Source: Rhodococcus pseudokoreensis (GTDB lineage Bacteria; Actinomycetota; Actinomycetes; Mycobacteriales; Mycobacteriaceae). From it: a stretch of 64,000 bases of DNA. Positions 24,025 to 30,339 of the stretch are shown piece after piece (the first letter of the stretch is position 1; every line of letters starts with the position of its first letter). Where the stretch lies: contig NZ_CP070616.1 in NCBI RefSeq assembly GCF_017068395.1, positions 1 to 64,000 of the forward strand, in the 5' to 3' direction. Position numbers and translations under genes: made by a program. Below the pieces are notes generated by a model. The model was not told where the DNA came from, searched no databases, and saw only the letters and a list, made by a program, of their open reading frames with translations.

Positions 24025-25185
24025 TTAGGAGTGTTGACCGGAGTGCGGAGCTGTCTCCCTGCTCGGGAACGGGTCGGACCGCGAATGACGGGTCGACCCC
24101 GAATGGTGAGGACGGTTCACCCTGTTGGTGGAGCGGCCAGCCCCGCATGGAGATCGCTCGAGCGGCGAGCAGCACTGTCGGGGTTGCTCGTGCCGGCTAG
24201 CAATTCCGCTGTCGGGTTCGGCGATTCCGGCGCAGCCGGGTCCCCAGGTTGGGGCGTCGAGGACGGTCCGGAGACTGGGGGAGCGGACGAAGTGATCGGT
24301 CCGCAACCGGGAACCGGGGTGCCCGAGATCGGTGAGCGCCCTCTCGGCATCGGTGAGGCGAAGCGGCGTCAGGTCGATGCGGATCCGCAGGAAGTACAGC
24401 ACCGCACCACCGGATCGCGGGATCGTCATGGGGTCGGACACCACGACCGTCGGCGGGTACACCCACCCGTCGTCGACGGAGACGAAGACGACCACGTCGC
24501 CGCGCCGGACAGCGCTGGTGCGGTCGAGGCGCAACGATTCGAGCCCGTACCTGACCGCCGGCCCTGCCGTGGCCGGTCGCCGCGACCGGTGCTCGTCGAG
24601 CACATGCTGTTCGGTGGGACTGGGCTCGTAGTCGACGGCATGCTTGACGAACATCCGGGTGACCGGGACCGGCAGAAACCCGGCCTCCGGGTCGCGGATT
24701 CGACCGGTCACCCCGGGGATCGGCACCGCCCGGCCGATCTCCCACTCCCGAGCGGCATTATCGATGAAAACCGCATCGACTTCGGTGATCTCGTCGATGC
24801 GGTCGATGAACGTCCGCACCGAATCAATCACCTCGGGGTCATCGGTGATGATGACGGCATCGTCGGCGAAGGCCGAGTTCTCGGAGGCATTCGCCGACCC
24901 GACCACCGCTCGCCGACTGGTGACGATGACCTTCGCATGCAGGGTCGGCGACGACAGCACCCGAACACCCTTGTTGAGGTAGTAGGCGAGGGCCGCGGGG
25001 GAGGTGGCATGCGCCCGGATCGCGCCCTTGGACGCGTTGACGACCAACAAGTCACCGGCGCGCAGGGGAAGCAGCTCTGGTGCGTCCTGGCCGAGGTAGG
25101 CGATCGCCGCGCGGCGGGCGCCGCGGGTGCCGATGGCGCGGGTGATGTGTGGCCATGGGCTCGGTCCGTGGAAAGTGGTCCCCAT
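24025..25185 (-). CDS. PLD-like (HKD) domain protein
   Basis: In this 386-residue protein the block LHAKVIVTSRRAVVGSANAS around residue 94 has the HxK and GSxN signature of phospholipase D-fold enzymes, a family that includes nucleases and phosphotransferases. Only one HKD motif is present, so a homodimer would form the site. The C-terminal 70 residues are Pro/Ser/Arg-rich and may be read out of frame. It is divergent from the ART-like gene at 25468; possible DNA-acting role (inference). Confidence 0.7.
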   Translation of the reverse strand: MGTTFHGPSPWPHITRAIGTRGARRAAIAYLGQDAPELLPLRAGDLLVVNASKGAIRAHATSPAALAYYLNKGVRVLSSPTLHAKVIVTSRRAVVGSANASENSAFADDAVIITDDPEVIDSVRTFIDRIDEITEVDAVFIDNAAREWEIGRAVPIPGVTGRIRDPEAGFLPVPVTRMFVKHAVDYEPSPTEQHVLDEHRSRRPATAGPAVRYGLESLRLDRTSAVRRGDVVVFVSVDDGWVYPPTVVVSDPMTIPRSGGAVLYFLRIRIDLTPLRLTDAERALTDLGHPGSRLRTDHFVRSPSLRTVLDAPTWGPGCAGIAEPDSGIASRHEQPRQCCSPLERSPCGAGRSTNRVNRPHHSGSTRHSRSDPFPSRETAPHSGQHS

Positions 25186-25467
25186 ACCAACTGACGGTAG
25201 CGGCCCATACGTGAGTGGGTGCACTGTTGGTCGCCATGCTTTGGCGGAGCCTGATGCCGGGCACGATCTTTCGGTATAGTTTCGGGCATCCGGCGGAGAC
25301 GCCGGCGACACGCACGCCGAACGTTGTTGATGGTTTGGTCGCCAGATGACGCACGTTCGCCGTGGCACCCACCAGGTGTGGGTCCGAGCGTGGCAGATGG
25401 TTACTAAGGCCCGTCTGCCACGCTTCGTCGTATCCACGGGGCGAAATCCGAGGCGGGGAGGCGACGG

Positions 25468-26352
25468 GTGGCATACAGCATCAGCCCGGACACCAGGGAC
25501 ACTCGCCTGGACCCCGAGGCCGGCATCAGCACCACCCCGGCCGCCAAGCCCGCCGGCTACCGCACGGCAGCAAACTATGACGACCGTGCCGCCGACCGCG
25601 ACGGGGCCCGGGAACTGGACCGGATGGTCGAGGAGGCCCAATTCACCCGTGCCCGCAAAGACCTCGAGCGAGCCTTCCCCCGGACCACGGTGCCGGAGGT
25701 GTCCGAGCGGAAACGCCGGGAGCTGCCGATCCCGGATTCGATTCGCCAGCCACCGAGTTCGCGGCAGCGCAAGGCCCGGTCGGTGAACAAGAACCGGGCG
25801 CAAACCCAGCTTCCGAAGGTCGGGTACACCGCGGTGCAGAACCTGATCACCGACCCCGACCGGTGGGACGAGGTCAGCGGCGCGCTCTCACGCGCGCGGG
25901 GCGACGCCCAGCAGTTGGAGGAGAAGATGCGCTCCCAGGTCCAGCGTGTCGATCGCGCGATTCAGACCGCGGAACGGTTCAACGACCGCGGCCACATCCT
26001 CTACGCCGCCGTCCGACTCCCACACACGGCACCACAGGAGGCGGCGAACCTGCCGTCGACCCTGCAACCCGGCTCCCGCCTCGAGTTCGACCGGTACACC
26101 GGGGCGGCGCATGCCCTTCACGAACTCGATCAGACACTGACCGAACGGGACGTTGTGTTCGAGATCGACACCGGCCGGGGCATGTATCTGGGACGCTCGG
26201 ACACGGTCGACGACACCGCGCACCTGCTACCGCGCGGGATGCGGTTCGAGGTGATCTCCTCCGGCCCTGGGCGTTACCGCCGACCGGATGGATCGATCGG
26301 CGAGCAGATGATCGTGCAACTGAAAGACATCACCGACGAGAAGGGGTTGTGA
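25468..26352 (+). CDS. ADP-ribosyltransferase-like protein
   Basis: This 294-residue protein has a long charged, helical N-terminal half (AQQLEEKMRSQVQRVDRAIQ), then about 110 residues resembling the ART fold: GHILYAAVRLPHT, LEFDRYTGAAH, VVFEIDTGRGMYLG and LLPRGMRFEVIS, like the E-x-LLPRG-x-F ending of bacterial ARTs. The usual catalytic Glu just before LLPRG is replaced by TAH, so activity is uncertain. GTG start with GGGAG upstream. It lies next to the type IV-B locus. Confidence 0.5.
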   Translation: MAYSISPDTRDTRLDPEAGISTTPAAKPAGYRTAANYDDRAADRDGARELDRMVEEAQFTRARKDLERAFPRTTVPEVSERKRRELPIPDSIRQPPSSRQRKARSVNKNRAQTQLPKVGYTAVQNLITDPDRWDEVSGALSRARGDAQQLEEKMRSQVQRVDRAIQTAERFNDRGHILYAAVRLPHTAPQEAANLPSTLQPGSRLEFDRYTGAAHALHELDQTLTERDVVFEIDTGRGMYLGRSDTVDDTAHLLPRGMRFEVISSGPGRYRRPDGSIGEQMIVQLKDITDEKGL

Positions 26353-26564
26353 TGGGATTGTTCACCGACGGCAAGGGCCGCCCCGAGCTGGTTATGCACC
26401 CGGACATCAAGCTGGGACGCGCACATTACCGGCCTGTCGACGACGAGCCCGAGCCGGAGGAGACGCCGAAGCAGCGCGCGCGCCGCGAGCTGAAGATGCG
26501 GCTGAGCGCCGAGAAACGGGCACGGGAGAAGAAAGAAAAGCCCGGAGACACCAACCCCCAGTAG
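26352..26564 (+). CDS. Small charged hypothetical protein
   Basis: This 70-residue protein starts within the stop region of the ART-like gene (GTGATG), indicating coupled translation. The C-terminal half is highly charged and helical (KQRARRELKMRLSAEKRARE). It may be a partner or antidote of the upstream protein (inference). Confidence 0.6.
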   Translation: MGLFTDGKGRPELVMHPDIKLGRAHYRPVDDEPEPEETPKQRARRELKMRLSAEKRAREKKEKPGDTNPQ

Positions 26565-26704
26565 GGGTGACGCCTCCGGCTCATCCTGTGCAACCGCAGT
26601 AACCGAGACACTACCTCAGGTAGTGCAGCAGTGACGGGAGCCGGGACCTCATGGATTGGCAGTAGCGCGCGACGTCACCGACGTCGTTCGCGGTGATGCA
26701 GCCG

Positions 26705-27508
26705 TCAGGTCATCTGCCGAATGCGAGGCAAGGTGTCGGCAATCTGCTCGAAGAGGGTGGGCCAGCCGCGCCGCAGCCAGGTCAGCCGGCCGCGGTCAAG
26801 GTGCCCGCCGTCAATCAGGTGCGAGAGCCGGTGCTGGTGTTCGGGCACACCGAGTTCGCGGAGTCTGGTGTAGACGGGATTGACCGGTAATCGGTGTCGG
26901 GCGATGTGCGCCCAGACGTCGGTGGTGGCCCAGTTCCAGATCGGCCCATACGCGGTGGTGCCGTCCGCGCGGACGATGACCCCGTCACGGAGACCCTTGC
27001 GGGTGTAGAGCAGGCGGCGGGCGGCCGATTCGTCGGCCCGCACACCCCACAACTCACCCGGCCCGAGGAGCCGGTGCGCGCGGCGGGCGGGCTCGGCGAT
27101 CAACACCTCGTGCAAATCCATCGCGGCTGCTGTGACGTCGGCGGTCGCGTGGTGGTCCCACAACCCGGAGTCGGCGAGGACATCGAGCAGCGGCGGATCA
27201 GTACGGATCCGGTGCAGATCCAGCCCCCAAGTGTGGGCGAGTTCGGTGAGGTAGTCGTAGGTTTCGGGGTAATCGAGACCGGAATCGAAGAACACCACCG
27301 GCACATCCGGATCAACCCGGCGGGCCAGGTCGAGAACGACTAACGAGTCTTTGCCGCCGGAGAACGCGACGTACCCGTCATGCGCGGTCAGGTGCGCCTC
27401 GATCCGCGTGAGGATGGTGTCGACGGCGGCCGGGCCGGCCTTCGTCGACGGTGCCCGCAATCCACGGAGCACGGTCAGGTCCAGGCCGGGGCCGGCTGCA
27501 TCCACCAC
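26705..27508 (-). CDS. cysH-like: CysH-like (PAPS reductase family) protein of type IV-B CRISPR
   Basis: This is a 267-residue adenine-nucleotide alpha-hydrolase family protein. GYVAFSGGKDSLVVLDLARR holds the SGGKDS P-loop; VPVVFFDSGLDYPETYDYL and LWGVRADESAARRLL follow as in PAPS reductases and DndC. The catalytic C-terminal Cys of assimilatory CysH is missing, so it is not a normal sulfate-assimilation enzyme. It is transcribed divergently, about 23 bp from csf1. CysH-like proteins are the known hallmark companion of array-less type IV-B systems. GTG 27508 is chosen, though a later GTG is possible given the short gap. Confidence 0.87.
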   Translation of the reverse strand: MVDAAGPGLDLTVLRGLRAPSTKAGPAAVDTILTRIEAHLTAHDGYVAFSGGKDSLVVLDLARRVDPDVPVVFFDSGLDYPETYDYLTELAHTWGLDLHRIRTDPPLLDVLADSGLWDHHATADVTAAAMDLHEVLIAEPARRAHRLLGPGELWGVRADESAARRLLYTRKGLRDGVIVRADGTTAYGPIWNWATTDVWAHIARHRLPVNPVYTRLRELGVPEHQHRLSHLIDGGHLDRGRLTWLRRGWPTLFEQIADTLPRIRQMT

Positions 27509-27531
27509 ACTTGGCAGGTTACGGTGCCGCC

Positions 27532-28203
27532 ATGACCCTCGCCGCCGACACCGATGTCGTCTGGGCCGCCTACACCGCCGCCTCCGGGTCCGTCGACGCG
27601 GCAACACCCGACGACCGAACGACGGGGTGCGCGCGCTGCGGCCACACCACACCGGTGATGACCCCGGTCGGGCAGGTGATCTCCCGGCGGTTCACCGGCT
27701 TCGAATCCTGGACGAACCTGGCCGCCCGGAAACTGTGTCAGGTGTGCGCGTGGGCATACCGAGACCGGACGTTGCGCTCCGACGCGCGTATCGTCACCCG
27801 TGATCCCGCCACACTGAGAACGGCGACCCCCACACTGCTACACCAGGTGCTCTCCACCACCCTCGGCGCGGACACCGCGGTGATCGTGCCGCTGCGGCCC
27901 GGCCGCAAACACCTGATACCCGATGCCCGTTGGGGCGCCGTCACGGTCGACGACAGCCGGCTGAATTGGGCGGCAGAAGATGCCCGCCGCCTCGAGGTGA
28001 TGTGCCGGCTCCGCGACCGCGGCTTCACCGAAACCATGCTCCGCGACAACGCCCCCACCTACTCCGTGGTGCACCGCCTCCCGGCCGACCGCTGGCCACA
28101 GGTCTTCGACGACTGGAACCTGTTGGCGCCGTGGCGGCACGCGGACCCGTGGTGGGAGGTCGGCCTCCGCGCCACCCGACACCAGCACACTCCGGCACCA
28201 TGA
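27532..28203 (+). CDS. csf1: Type IV-B CRISPR protein Csf1 (large-subunit-like)
   Basis: This 223-residue protein has a two-pair Cys zinc site, GCARCGHTT near residue 33 and LCQVCAWAYRDR near residue 79, with FTGFESWTNLAARKL between them, the pattern of Csf1. Csf1 plays the Cas8-like part in type IV effector complexes. It heads a tight rightward set csf1-cas11-csf2-csf3, with the cysH-like gene on the other strand. No DinG helicase, Cas1/2 or Cas6 gene is in the window. Confidence 0.85.
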   Translation: MTLAADTDVVWAAYTAASGSVDAATPDDRTTGCARCGHTTPVMTPVGQVISRRFTGFESWTNLAARKLCQVCAWAYRDRTLRSDARIVTRDPATLRTATPTLLHQVLSTTLGADTAVIVPLRPGRKHLIPDARWGAVTVDDSRLNWAAEDARRLEVMCRLRDRGFTETMLRDNAPTYSVVHRLPADRWPQVFDDWNLLAPWRHADPWWEVGLRATRHQHTPAP

Positions 28204-28304
28204 CCTCACCAAACCATCAGCCGATGAATGTCGTCGGACCGCTCAGGTTGTTGAGCCGATGAGCTCTCGACTCGAGAAAACTCCGATTCTTCTCTAGCAT
28301 TGCG

Positions 28305-28748
28305 GTGATGACTATGTCGGGGGAAAACGCACTGTCAGTAACCGACCGCTGGCTGGCCGCGGTTCCACAACTACCCGGGCTGACCGACCCCGCCGCGCAG
28401 GCGGCGGAGCGGTTGGTGCTGCTGCTGCACTACGGAATCGACTGGTCCGACCGCAACTGGGTGGCTGCCCGCCGCGGCGACTACTGGGACGCCCTGCTGC
28501 CCACTAGGGTGCGGTTGGCCACCTACAACAGCATCAACCTGCACCAGTGGTGGACCGCCTCCGCCGCCCGGCTCGGCTCCGCCCCGCGCACCGACGACCA
28601 ACGCTCCGAACTGGCCACGCTCCTCACGAGCGAACCGCGGCCCGTGCTGCAGGTGATGCGCGATCAAACCACCGCGCTGACCCTGCGGATCCGGATCGTC
28701 GCCGACGCAGTCCGCGGCGCCCGCACCGAGCACGGACTGGCATCGTGA
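28305..28748 (+). CDS. cas11: Type IV-B small subunit Cas11-like
   Basis: This 147-residue all-helical protein (AAERLVLLLHYGIDWSDRNW, ATYNSINLHQWWTASA) lies exactly where type IV-B loci carry the small subunit. Its stop overlaps the csf2 start (GTGA). Starts at 28305 (GTG), 28308 and 28314 (ATG) are all possible. A 100-bp gap after csf1 could hold an internal promoter. Identity rests mainly on size, helical composition and position. Confidence 0.75.
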   Translation: MMTMSGENALSVTDRWLAAVPQLPGLTDPAAQAAERLVLLLHYGIDWSDRNWVAARRGDYWDALLPTRVRLATYNSINLHQWWTASAARLGSAPRTDDQRSELATLLTSEPRPVLQVMRDQTTALTLRIRIVADAVRGARTEHGLAS

Positions 28749-29599
28749 CCGTCACGCGGGTGTGGGAGATCGAGATGACCGCGAAATCCCCGATCTCGCA
28801 TCGCGGGGAGCTGATCGGCACCACCGCGATCGGCCGGCGCATGAAAATCCTTCAACCCGACGGATCCGTCGAGCTGGTCCCGGTCATCTCCGGCAACTCC
28901 TTCCGCGGCGTACTGCGCCGGATCGCCGAAGAACTGCTGCGCGACATCCTCGGCTACGAGGGCAAGTTGCCGCTGGCCGTCGCACACACCCTCCGCAACG
29001 GCGGCGCGATCGTGAAAACGCAGGCGGAGCCGATCACCGGCCGCCGCCTGCACCAACTCCGTGAGTTGGTACCACTGCTGAGTGTGTTCGGCGGCGCCGT
29101 CGGGGCCGCCCCGATCGACGGTTGCCTGCGGGTCGGGCATGTGGTGCCGATCGTCACCGAAGCCGCCCCGATCCTCCGCCGCAGCTATGAGGGCCAGCCG
29201 CTGCCGTCGAGGTTCGACATCGAAGCGCTCGAGTCCTACTCGCACCTCGACGACGTCACCGCCGGCCATGCCGGCACCACCGTCGATCCGGATTCCGGAT
29301 CGGGTGGGTCGGGGTCGCCGGTAATGCGATACGACATCGAAACCCTCGCCCCCGGAACCCGCTTCGAGGCATGGGTGCAACTGGTCCGCGGATCCGACCT
29401 CGACCACGCCTTCACCGCCGACGTCCTGGCCGAGTTCACCCGCACCGGCTGGCTGGGTGGGCGCACCGGGATCGGGCACGGCCAGATCGCCACCACCCTC
29501 GACCCAACCCCTGATGGTGCGCCGGTGGTCGATTGGCGGGAGATCGTCGCCGCACGACGCGATGAGGCCCTGGAAACCCTGCTCTCGCTCCCTGCATGA
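28745..29599 (+). CDS. csf2: Type IV-B Cas7-like backbone protein Csf2
   Basis: This 284-residue RAMP-superfamily protein shows VWEIEMTAKSPISHRGELIG near the N-terminus, VISGNSFRGVLRRIAEELL, typical of Csf2/Cas7 proteins, and C-terminal LAEFTRTGWLGGRTGIGHGQ. Csf2 polymerises along guide RNA. It overlaps cas11 upstream and csf3 downstream by 4 bp each. Confidence 0.87.
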   Translation: MTVTRVWEIEMTAKSPISHRGELIGTTAIGRRMKILQPDGSVELVPVISGNSFRGVLRRIAEELLRDILGYEGKLPLAVAHTLRNGGAIVKTQAEPITGRRLHQLRELVPLLSVFGGAVGAAPIDGCLRVGHVVPIVTEAAPILRRSYEGQPLPSRFDIEALESYSHLDDVTAGHAGTTVDPDSGSGGSGSPVMRYDIETLAPGTRFEAWVQLVRGSDLDHAFTADVLAEFTRTGWLGGRTGIGHGQIATTLDPTPDGAPVVDWREIVAARRDEALETLLSLPA

Positions 29600-30339
29600 C
29601 CCTGCCGATCGCTGCAGGGATGGTGCCGCTGATCATCCGGGCGAAATTGGCCGCCGGTGTCGCGCACGCGGTGCCGTGGGGCATCAGCCTCGACGGCCTC
29701 CTGGCCTCGGAGATCCGGGAGAACACCAAGGCCGCCGCCCGAGCATCCGGAACCGACTACACCCCCTACAGTCTCGACACCGTGCCGGAGGACCTCGACC
29801 TGCCACTGGCCCGCTGCCCGGGCGACGGCGGTGACCGGTGGCACTGGGCAGCGACATTCGCCTACCCCGAGGACGAGGACGAGGTCCCGGGCCCGCACGT
29901 GCAGTACTGGTCCGCCCGCCCCGACCAACAGGCCCTGGAACAGATGTCGGTCGAGTTGCCGGCGTTGGTGTCCGAACGACAGGGCCGTTACCGCTCCCGC
30001 GTCATGCCGCTCCCGCTCACGGCCTGCCGGCACCTGGTGTGGCGCGCCGTCGGCGACGCAGTCGCCATCACCGAGTTGCTTGCACCCCTCGTTTCGATCG
30101 GGAAGAAACGCGGCGCCGGAAACGGCCACATCCTGTCTTGGGAGATCACCGAGCAGTCGGTCGGCAAGCCGTGGGAGTTCGCGCACCTGCACCCCGACGG
30201 CAGTCTCGGCCGCACCGCACCCGCGACCTGCCTGCATGAGCGCGGCGACCTGCGAACGGGTGGGGAGGGGCGGATGGGGTTGCGTCCGCCGTACATGCAC
30301 CCATCCCGTCGCGCACAGGTGCTTCTACCAGCGACCTGA
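29596..30339 (+). CDS. csf3: Type IV-B Cas5-like protein Csf3
   Basis: This 247-residue protein begins MTLPIAAGMVPLIIRAKLAA (RRM-like strand) and has the conserved loop IGKKRGAGNGHILSWEI around residue 170 that marks Csf3/Cas5-type RAMPs. ATGA overlap with csf2. In type IV complexes it caps one end of the backbone. It is the last gene of the set; no CRISPR repeats follow. Confidence 0.85.
   Translation: MTLPIAAGMVPLIIRAKLAAGVAHAVPWGISLDGLLASEIRENTKAAARASGTDYTPYSLDTVPEDLDLPLARCPGDGGDRWHWAATFAYPEDEDEVPGPHVQYWSARPDQQALEQMSVELPALVSERQGRYRSRVMPLPLTACRHLVWRAVGDAVAITELLAPLVSIGKKRGAGNGHILSWEITEQSVGKPWEFAHLHPDGSLGRTAPATCLHERGDLRTGGEGRMGLRPPYMHPSRRAQVLLPAT

What the first reader, a model, noticed from the sequence alone, without database searches (positions are those of the whole stretch)
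26705..30339. Array-less type IV-B CRISPR-Cas locus with CysH-like partner
csf1 (two Cys pairs), a helical small-subunit gene, csf2 (SGNSFRGVLRR) and csf3 (GKKRGAGNGH loop) form one overlapping set, divergent from a CysH-like SGGKDS protein without the catalytic Cys of assimilatory CysH. This is the known type IV-B arrangement, whose biological role is still unresolved. I see no CRISPR repeats, adaptation genes, Cas6 or DinG anywhere in the window. The 23-bp gap between the divergent starts means promoters must lie inside genes or transcripts are leaderless.
Basis: partly seen in the sequence, partly recalled or inferred. Interest (0 to 1): 0.92.

Follow-up and report, generated by a model that had tools for sequence, protein, structure and literature searches.

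The report
Plasmid CRISPR-like complex with unnoticed partner
A soil bacterium's plasmid carries a known but unexplained CRISPR-like complex without a CRISPR memory of its own, and comparison with other plasmids suggests that it travels with an extra, so far unannotated protein that may point to what it does.

Summary
Csf1, Cas11, Csf2, Csf3 and a cysteine-free CysH-like protein match type IV-B families. The host genome is Rhodococcus-like; its smaller contigs hold two more full IV-B loci and one broken one. No array was found on the five smaller contigs (146 bases unread), and no Cas1 or PF10040-type Cas6 in the genome; the chromosome was not scanned for arrays.

As type IV-B this is ordinary. 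An unannotated gene, X (25468-26352), with a small follower Y, belongs to the module: only X, cysH, csf1, cas11, csf2 and csf3 of this contig are shared with all three whole plasmids compared. X occurs in 56 of 72,556 plasmids, 54 of them among the 60 csf2 records listed of 69. In mycobacteria and Gordonia X, Y and cysH are adjacent as in an operon. X's C-terminal profile matches ADP-ribosyltransferases best (E 5.6e-4), but the recalled catalytic Glu is absent in 18 of 18.

Motifs read by eye suggest leaderless divergent promoters and a separate palindromic promoter before cas11. No conserved RNA gene was seen. Structure prediction never ran. Function remains inferred.

The parts
25380..25467 (+). 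leader/promoter region of X
   Evidence: DNA aligned from 25379-25380 on in 3 of 8 clade relatives (L038, L078, L080), not in the other five; ribosome-binding-site-like GGGGAGG before the GTG start seen by eye
25468..26352 (+). X: unannotated type IV-B partner protein (294 aa); C-terminal domain resembles the ADP-ribosyltransferase fold by profile, recalled catalytic Glu absent
26353..26564 (+). Y: small protein (about 70 aa) directly after X, weak shared motif HPdI...FRxV
   Evidence: by eye; DNA aligned in L038, L068, L078, L080 of 8 relatives
26705..27508 (-). CysH-like PP-loop protein, SGGKDS and GVRADES motifs, no cysteine
27509..27531 (.). probable divergent leaderless promoter: -10-like TACGGT (+) 6 bases before the csf1 ATG and TAACCT (-) 7 bases before the cysH GTG
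   Evidence: GGTTACGGTGC conserved in 7 of the 17 loci printed; motifs read by eye, no chance estimate
27532..28203 (+). csf1 (large subunit, two CxxC)
   Evidence: PADLOC E 9e-84
28267..28304 (+). promoter/operator-like element of cas11-csf2-csf3: CTCGAGAAAAC-N8-TTCTCTAG imperfect inverted repeat overlapping a -10-like TAGCAT that ends 7 bases before the cas11 ATG
   Evidence: DNA aligned in 6 of 8 relatives
28308..28748 (+). cas11 (small subunit)
   Evidence: PADLOC E 5e-59
28745..29599 (+). csf2 (Cas7-like)
   Evidence: PADLOC E 8e-99, TIGR03115 7e-9 below cut-off, PDB 7jhy 2e-51
29596..30339 (+). csf3 (Cas5-like)
   Evidence: PADLOC E 2e-99, TIGR03116 5e-7 below cut-off

Best explanation
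This is a plasmid-type type IV-B module with seven genes, not five: X-Y, cysH, csf1, cas11-csf2-csf3. SHOWN HERE: gene content and order, the conserved DNA blocks of the module, strong co-occurrence of X with csf2, a cysteine-free CysH, and no array, Cas1 or PF10040 Cas6 and no conserved RNA gene where looked for. INFERRED: Csf2 and Cas11 form an RNA-binding filament (shown by others for a mycobacterial relative, PMC7937560) that loads on RNA supplied by the cell rather than on a guide encoded in the locus. CysH, a PP-loop ATP-binding protein without the thiol of a reductase, and X, an ADP-ribosyltransferase-like protein with an altered active site, form the working end: they bind or transfer nucleotide groups (AMP or ADP-ribose type chemistry) on RNA or protein brought in by the filament. 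The likely benefit is to the plasmid: shielding it from, or disabling, RNA-based host defence or competing elements. Expression is split: cysH and csf1 from a shared leaderless promoter, cas11-csf2-csf3 from a separate palindromic one. Step by step I hold: type IV-B 0.97; X is a functional partner 0.85; X has an ADP-ribosyltransferase fold 0.7 (lowered from 0.75 on rechecking: the best single stretch has E 0.0056 and the LLPRG stretch alone is not significant); nucleotide-transfer working end 0.35; plasmid counter-defence 0.3.
For: Families. X as partner: among ORFs of 70 aa or more of C3 (blastp E up to 1e-8) only X, cysH, csf1, cas11, csf2 and csf3 are shared with all three of pXCEL01, Gordonia Swx-4 and Mycolicibacterium NZ_CP122997; two other C3 ORFs match one plasmid each. 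X is in 56 of 72,556 plasmids; 54 of the 56 are in the 60 csf2 records listed of 69; start-to-start distance median 6.4 kb, 40 of 54 within 10 kb. In 401 genomes of the family csf2 matches in 27 and X in 23, 21 shared, Fisher P 1.4e-27, not corrected for kinship. In 394 genomes of the class X is in 2, the window's own and one other, both with csf2. X, Y and cysH lie on one strand with overlaps of 1-4 bases or gaps of 0-13 bases in four mycobacterial plasmids and one of Gordonia. Fold of X: the two best of 177,635 PDB sequences are ADP-ribosyltransferases (1ojq E 5.6e-4, 3bw8 E 0.67), with weak single-member hits to PF01129 and PF03496. No RNA-gene-like conserved block; no Rfam match in the window. 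Promoters.
Against: In one search the best single stretch of 1ojq has E 0.0056 and the LLPRG stretch alone is insignificant; single members hit ten other families about as weakly. The recalled catalytic Glu position before LLPRG holds no Glu in 18 of 18 and no Arg follows the invariant Tyr, so X may be enzymatically dead. X was not found in IMG/VR, nor in the stretches held of 20 IMG/VR type IV-B loci, nor in the archaeal plasmid CP135527, nor in class genomes G560, G570 and G597 with distant csf2, so the complex can exist without it. In some plasmids X lies 64-115 kb from csf2. Two X plasmids (CP070610, CP092102) were not among the listed csf2 records, six of the 60 listed csf2 records lack X, and nine csf2 records were not listed. 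X aligned at DNA level in only 5 of 8 clade relatives: in G004 and G071 it lies elsewhere on the contig, in L012 it was not found in the stretch held. Nothing computed here shows what the complex acts on.
Confidence: 0.4

Rival explanations
1. RNA sponge: the Csf filament only soaks up small guide RNAs of host defences; CysH and X have roles in assembly or regulation, not in catalysis.
For: The solved complex binds heterogeneous RNA of about 55-60 nt (PMC7937560, parts 1 and 2 of 4 read). No guide-like conserved block in the module. X lacks the recalled catalytic Glu.
Against: In the PP-loop motif SGGKDS, S50, G52, K53, D54 and S55 are invariant in 12 CysH proteins, and X has invariant His, Asp and Tyr residues, which suggests kept chemistry. 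No Cas1 or PF10040 Cas6 was found in this genome whose guides could be sponged; other guide systems were not tested.
Confidence: 0.25
2. Borrowed-guide interference: the complex takes crRNAs from another CRISPR system and blocks transcription or replication of competing plasmids.
For: Type IV-A can remove plasmids by guide-directed repression (PMC11656645, passages read). In six genomes with several intact csf2 genes no two copies fell in the same hand-made group (0 same-group pairs, shuffle P 0.04).
Against: No array on contigs C1-C5 and no Cas1 or PF10040 Cas6 in this genome (chromosome not scanned for arrays). In the solved case co-expressed crRNAs were not enriched (PMC7937560). The group pattern is confounded by plasmid type, and the third group is loose (58-69% identity for its C1 and G011 members, 54-60% to the second group), so P could be larger with other groupings.
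Confidence: 0.15
3. X is a plasmid backbone or cargo gene that merely shares the plasmids with type IV-B.
For: X can lie 64-115 kb away, and in two Micrococcales plasmids it lies near a prepilin peptidase gene. X was not found in the IMG/VR type IV-B loci.
Against: No other gene of C3 is shared with all three plasmids compared; X-Y-cysH are adjacent or overlapping in four mycobacterial plasmids and one of Gordonia; conserved DNA around X ends on both sides.
Confidence: 0.12
4. An addiction module of the CreTA kind, with a hidden guide-like RNA in the csf1-cas11 slot keeping a toxin silent.
For: A cargo slot exists between csf1 and cas11, with a HEPN-domain protein and other unrelated cargo in relatives.
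Against: In the window the slot is about 100 bp and only its promoter part (28267-28304) is conserved; the cargo differs between loci. No dedicated search for degenerate repeats was made.
Confidence: 0.05

Closest known systems
Type IV-B CRISPR-Cas, Mycobacterium sp. JS623 (PDB 7jhy)
   Same: csf1, cas11, csf2, csf3; cysH stated for the subtype; no array in the operon; on a megaplasmid (PMC7937560); Csf2 matches at 2e-51
   Different: The parts of the paper read here name only cysH as ancillary gene; whether JS623 has X could not be checked (record not held)
Rhodococcus jostii RHA1 pRHL3 locus (NC_008271)
   Same: 91% identical Csf2, same X-Y / cysH / csf1 / promoter / cas11-csf2-csf3 layout
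   Different: About 0.5 kb between csf1 and cas11; two further genes annotated zinc-ribbon and pentapeptide-repeat between X-Y and cysH
PAPS reductase CysH and other PP-loop proteins (PADLOC BrxP, SspD, DndC)
   Same: PP-loop SGGKDS; PF01507 3.5e-21; PADLOC BrxP 7e-17, SspD 2e-5, DndC 6e-4
   Different: No cysteine, so no thiol chemistry; far below the NCBIfam cut-offs; the best BrxP stretch covers only about 50 of its 779 positions
C3-like ADP-ribosyltransferases (fold only)
   Same: A 40-residue helix region of X matches 1ojq and 3bw8, with an LLPRG stretch in line in 1ojq but not significant alone
   Different: Recalled catalytic Glu and Arg motif not conserved in X; X has a further N-terminal part of about 100 residues

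Membership tests
Type IV-B CRISPR-Cas | csf1, cas11, csf2, csf3 present together | tested here: met
Type IV-B CRISPR-Cas | cysH-like gene adjacent | tested here: met
Type IV-B CRISPR-Cas | no CRISPR array at the locus | tested here: met
   (window; contigs C1-C5 less 146 bases; chromosome not scanned)
Type IV-B CRISPR-Cas | no Cas6 / adaptation genes | tested here: met
   Cas1 PF01867 and Cas6 PF10040 in the whole genome; the Cas6 model rang in 2 of 14 controls; other Cas6 and Cas2/Cas4 families not tested
Type IV-B CRISPR-Cas | no DinG partner (would be IV-A) | not tested
   no DinG search was run; seven proteins at the locus were scanned and none matched one
Type IV-B CRISPR-Cas | Csf2-Cas11 filament on RNA | not testable with these tools
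   needs purification
Assimilatory CysH reductase | catalytic cysteine | tested here: not met
   0 Cys in the window protein; no invariant Cys column in the alignment of 12
ADP-ribosyltransferase (protein X) | fold | tested here: inconclusive
   profile best hits 1ojq E 5.6e-4, 3bw8 E 0.67; no structure obtained
ADP-ribosyltransferase (protein X) | catalytic Glu before the LLPRG strand (position recalled) | tested here: not met
   0 of 18
CreTA addiction module | crRNA-like RNA gene inside the cas operon | tested here: inconclusive
   no conserved non-coding block besides the promoters in the clade compared; no search for degenerate repeats

The most novel reading that the evidence does not exclude
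Actinobacterial type IV-B is a nucleotide-transfer machine: an RNA-loaded Csf filament delivers targets to a paired ATP-using CysH and an ADP-ribosyltransferase-like protein X with a new catalytic centre of invariant histidines, so that a CRISPR-derived complex would modify molecules chemically instead of cutting or blocking nucleic acids.
Probability: 0.2. Interest if true: 0.95.

Novelty: new variant of a known kind. Interest (0 to 1): 0.62.

Why it matters
The role of type IV-B is an open question, and the passages read here treat CysH as the key lead. A second conserved partner, next to cysH as in an operon in several plasmids and resembling a nucleotide-transfer fold, gives a concrete, testable handle: deletions, pull-downs and ATP/NAD assays can be aimed at CysH plus X. 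The promoter layout suggests how such a tightly packed locus is expressed and separates csf1 from the filament genes.

Tried and rejected
Plasmid-backbone origin of X: tested on four plasmids (C3 and three others) and disfavoured. A guide-RNA gene in the module: the conservation map and Rfam gave none; an RNA overlapping the genes or encoded elsewhere is not excluded. A CRISPR array on the smaller contigs: the repeats found have period 42 (C1 327438, C2 297437) or irregular spacing (C5 133964) and were judged not arrays by spacing. Conserved neighbours by all-frame ORF clustering were swamped by shadow frames; the X family and a ParA-like one were noted, only X was taken further. The csf1-cas11 cargo is unrelated between loci and was not pursued. 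X was sought in IMG/VR: none. Family searches of X gave only weak hits of few members (Pfam; PHROGs 88; NCBIfam 132; PADLOC 134, where IetS at E 0.0017 in 1 of 16 members was not followed). Exclusion between co-resident loci: P 0.04 with hand-made groups, one of them loose, confounded by plasmid type, no tree built; broken loci were left out of that count. Papers: PMC7937560 (parts 1 and 2 of 4), PMC8175902, PMC11656645, PMC12669027, PMC11127173, PMC12915292 (passages only); other papers only as listings. PMC7038947 and PMC8658065 are not held, and a 2018 survey cited in PMC8175902 was not looked up, so X may be mentioned there.


Full report
WHAT IS THERE. PADLOC also gives it BrxP at 7e-17, SspD 2e-5 and DndC 6e-4. 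The NCBIfam csf2 and csf3 models match below their cut-offs (35 of 130 and 29 of 140 bits).

WHERE IT LIES. The window is bases 1-64000 of a 77,479-base contig (C3) in a genome of six contigs and 9.87 Mb, the largest 8.73 Mb. I take the five smaller contigs for plasmids; that was not tested. The genome is Rhodococcus-like: same-genus genomes G005, G009 and G006 have contigs whose lengths equal those of R. jostii RHA1, R. opacus B4 and R. koreensis records, with csf2 at the same places. Two more full sets of csf genes with cysH sit on C1 (468,864 b) and C2 (320,146 b), with Csf2 52% and 49% identical to the window's. On C5 there is a cas11-csf2 remnant with a transposase-like ORF next to its promoter element (by eye) and X fragments. 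Several type IV-B loci per Rhodococcus cell are in print: PMC12915292 reports three on linear plasmid contigs of R. erythropolis NI86/21 (passages).

NO MEMORY. No Cas1 (the model rang in 9 of 14 control genomes) and no Cas6 of PF10040 (it rang in only 2 of 14, a weak test) in the whole genome. A scan for three or more exact 18-mers at 40-95 base spacing over C1-C5 (146 bases of C2 missing) found runs on C1, C2 and C5 that are period-42 or irregularly spaced repeats, and none on C3 or C4; a synthetic array was detected. The chromosome was not scanned and DinG was not searched.

PROTEIN X. Clustering ORFs within 9 kb of csf2 in 33 loci showed a family in 20 of them besides the csf genes and cysH: the window ORF 25468-26352. 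Blastp of every C3 ORF of 70 aa or more against three whole plasmids from Xylanimonas, Gordonia and Mycolicibacterium left X, cysH, csf1, cas11, csf2 and csf3 as the only genes shared with all three; shadow frames of these genes aside, two other ORFs matched one plasmid each. In 72,556 plasmids X is found in 56; 54 of these are among the 60 csf2 records listed of 69. The exceptions are CP070610 and CP092102. Six of the 60 listed csf2 records lack X: CP092100, CP058641, CP046574, CP015203, CP088909 and the archaeal CP135527; in CP058641 and CP046574 csf2 itself matched in four pieces. CysH at E up to 1e-20 gives 61 records, 60 listed, holding 55 of the 56 X records. In 401 genomes of the family csf2 matches in 27 and X in 23; 21 are shared, and the two X-only genomes (G013, G015) hold partial X. 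The six csf2-only genomes have partial matches (G139, G215, G309), a split gene (G289), a 25%-identity match (G194) or a 14-kb contig (G338). Of the 21 shared, G016 and G375 have csf2 only in pieces on separate contigs and G004 has a disturbed csf2 frame. In 394 genomes of the class X is in two, one of them the window's own, both with csf2; csf2 matches ten, five of them weak partial hits in long frames. So X marks one lineage of type IV-B on actinobacterial plasmids rather than the whole subtype: the 20 IMG/VR loci show none in the stretches held, and a search of IMG/VR with the X alignment found none.

X starts 2.4 to 115 kb from the best csf2 place, median 6.4 kb, 40 of 54 within 10 kb (start to start, circularity ignored; the 356-kb value for pRHL2 pairs a second X, another lies 7 kb from csf2 in the same plasmid). 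In Gordonia Swx-4 X, Y and cysH are consecutive with gaps of 2 and 13 bases; in four mycobacterial plasmids they overlap by 1-4 bases or abut. This is the best sign that X works with CysH. Y is short and weakly conserved; the mycobacterial gene in its place is longer, and my automatic pick of Y failed in several loci.

FOLD OF X. The profile of 16 X proteins finds 1ojq, an ADP-ribosyltransferase, at E 0.016. The C-terminal profile of 18 finds it at 5.6e-4 for the whole chain (best stretch 0.0056) and 3bw8, another, at 0.67: the two best of 177,635 sequences, through a 40-residue region; in 1ojq an LLPRG stretch lies in line but is not significant alone. Scanned singly, two members each touch PF01129 (0.012) and PF03496 (0.058), among ten other families about as weak, one of them better (PelD_GGDEF, 0.0048, one member). 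The position that I recall as the catalytic Glu holds A, T, S, H or L in 18 of 18, and no Arg follows the invariant Tyr, while His, Tyr, Phe-Asp and the His of HLLPRG are invariant. So X is at best an unusual member and is not filed as an active ADP-ribosyltransferase. The AlphaFold job was never accepted (16 tries), and its allowed alignment would have held only two sequences.

PROMOTERS. The divergent gap holds GGTTACGGTGC in 7 of the 17 loci printed, those with a gap of about 23 bp. Read both ways it gives TANNNT motifs 6 and 7 bases before the csf1 and cysH starts in the window, the spacing of leaderless actinobacterial transcripts (rule recalled; motifs by eye). Before cas11 an imperfect inverted repeat, CTCGAGAA and TTCTCTAG, overlaps a TAGNAT motif 7 bases from the ATG. 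It is unique in the window with 0.00 expected by chance. In 28 genus genomes the pattern occurs five times with none for the reversed control; four sites lie before a cas11 of normal length and the fifth before the decayed one on C5. Blastn of the region against eight clade relatives aligned 25380-26600 (5 of 8, not all to both ends), 26703-28181 (8 of 8, csf1 only in part in two) and 28267-30339 (promoter part in 6 of 8, csf3 truncated in one), and nothing in 26602-26698, 28182-28266 or after 30339. So I see no conserved block that looks like a guide-RNA gene; an RNA overlapping the genes is not excluded.

CARGO. Between csf1 and cas11 seven relatives carry 0.5-3.6 kb of other DNA, for example a HEPN-domain protein in USK13 or a pentapeptide-repeat-like protein in L089 (by eye); in H-CA8f (L069) and G278 (L090) 4-6 kb lie between csf2 and csf3.

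READING. In print: a type IV-B complex assembled on heterogeneous RNA (PMC7937560), and CysH was proposed to act by ATP alpha-hydrolysis and noted to lack the catalytic cysteine (PMC8175902, passages). Added here: a second conserved partner beside cysH, the promoter layout, and the lack of a conserved RNA gene in this clade. The proposed nucleotide-transfer mechanism is inference. I rate the locus itself as a member of a known subtype and the seven-gene actinobacterial form as a variant whose extra gene I did not find described in the papers and searches named above.

Noticed in passing
L122, 8700-10750 (IMG/VR contig, 61.5 kb): A phage-like contig (terminase-like ORF by eye) with a type IV-B operon also carries an eight-repeat CRISPR array (37-bp repeat, spacing 72-75) about 20 bases after a 491-aa ORF that looks TnpB/Cas12-like by eye.
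   Followed up: partly
L077 (archaeal plasmid NZ_CP135527), 10867-14063: Type IV-B in Halomontanus has two PP-loop proteins, annotated DUF3440 and PAPS reductase family, on either side of a ParB-like and a GNAT gene.
   Followed up: no
G000:C5:19785-26113: Decayed type IV-B remnant (cas11, start of csf2, X fragments) with a transposase-like ORF just upstream of its promoter element.
   Followed up: partly
G000, G005, G006, G009, G011, G278: In the six genomes with several intact csf2 genes no two copies fall in the same hand-made identity group, while broken copies resembling the window's group occur in RHA1 (G005) and in the window's genome.
   Followed up: partly
L068, 6071-7345: HEPN-domain protein annotated between csf1 and cas11 on pUSK13_2.
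   Followed up: no
L036, L070, L071, L086, L095, L097: A MinD/ParA-like gene (annotated in L070 and L071) lies upstream of csf1, between it and cysH where cysH is held, in one group of loci.
   Followed up: no
window 24025-25803, minus strand: A long open frame (592 aa) runs antisense into the start of X; not examined.
   Followed up: no
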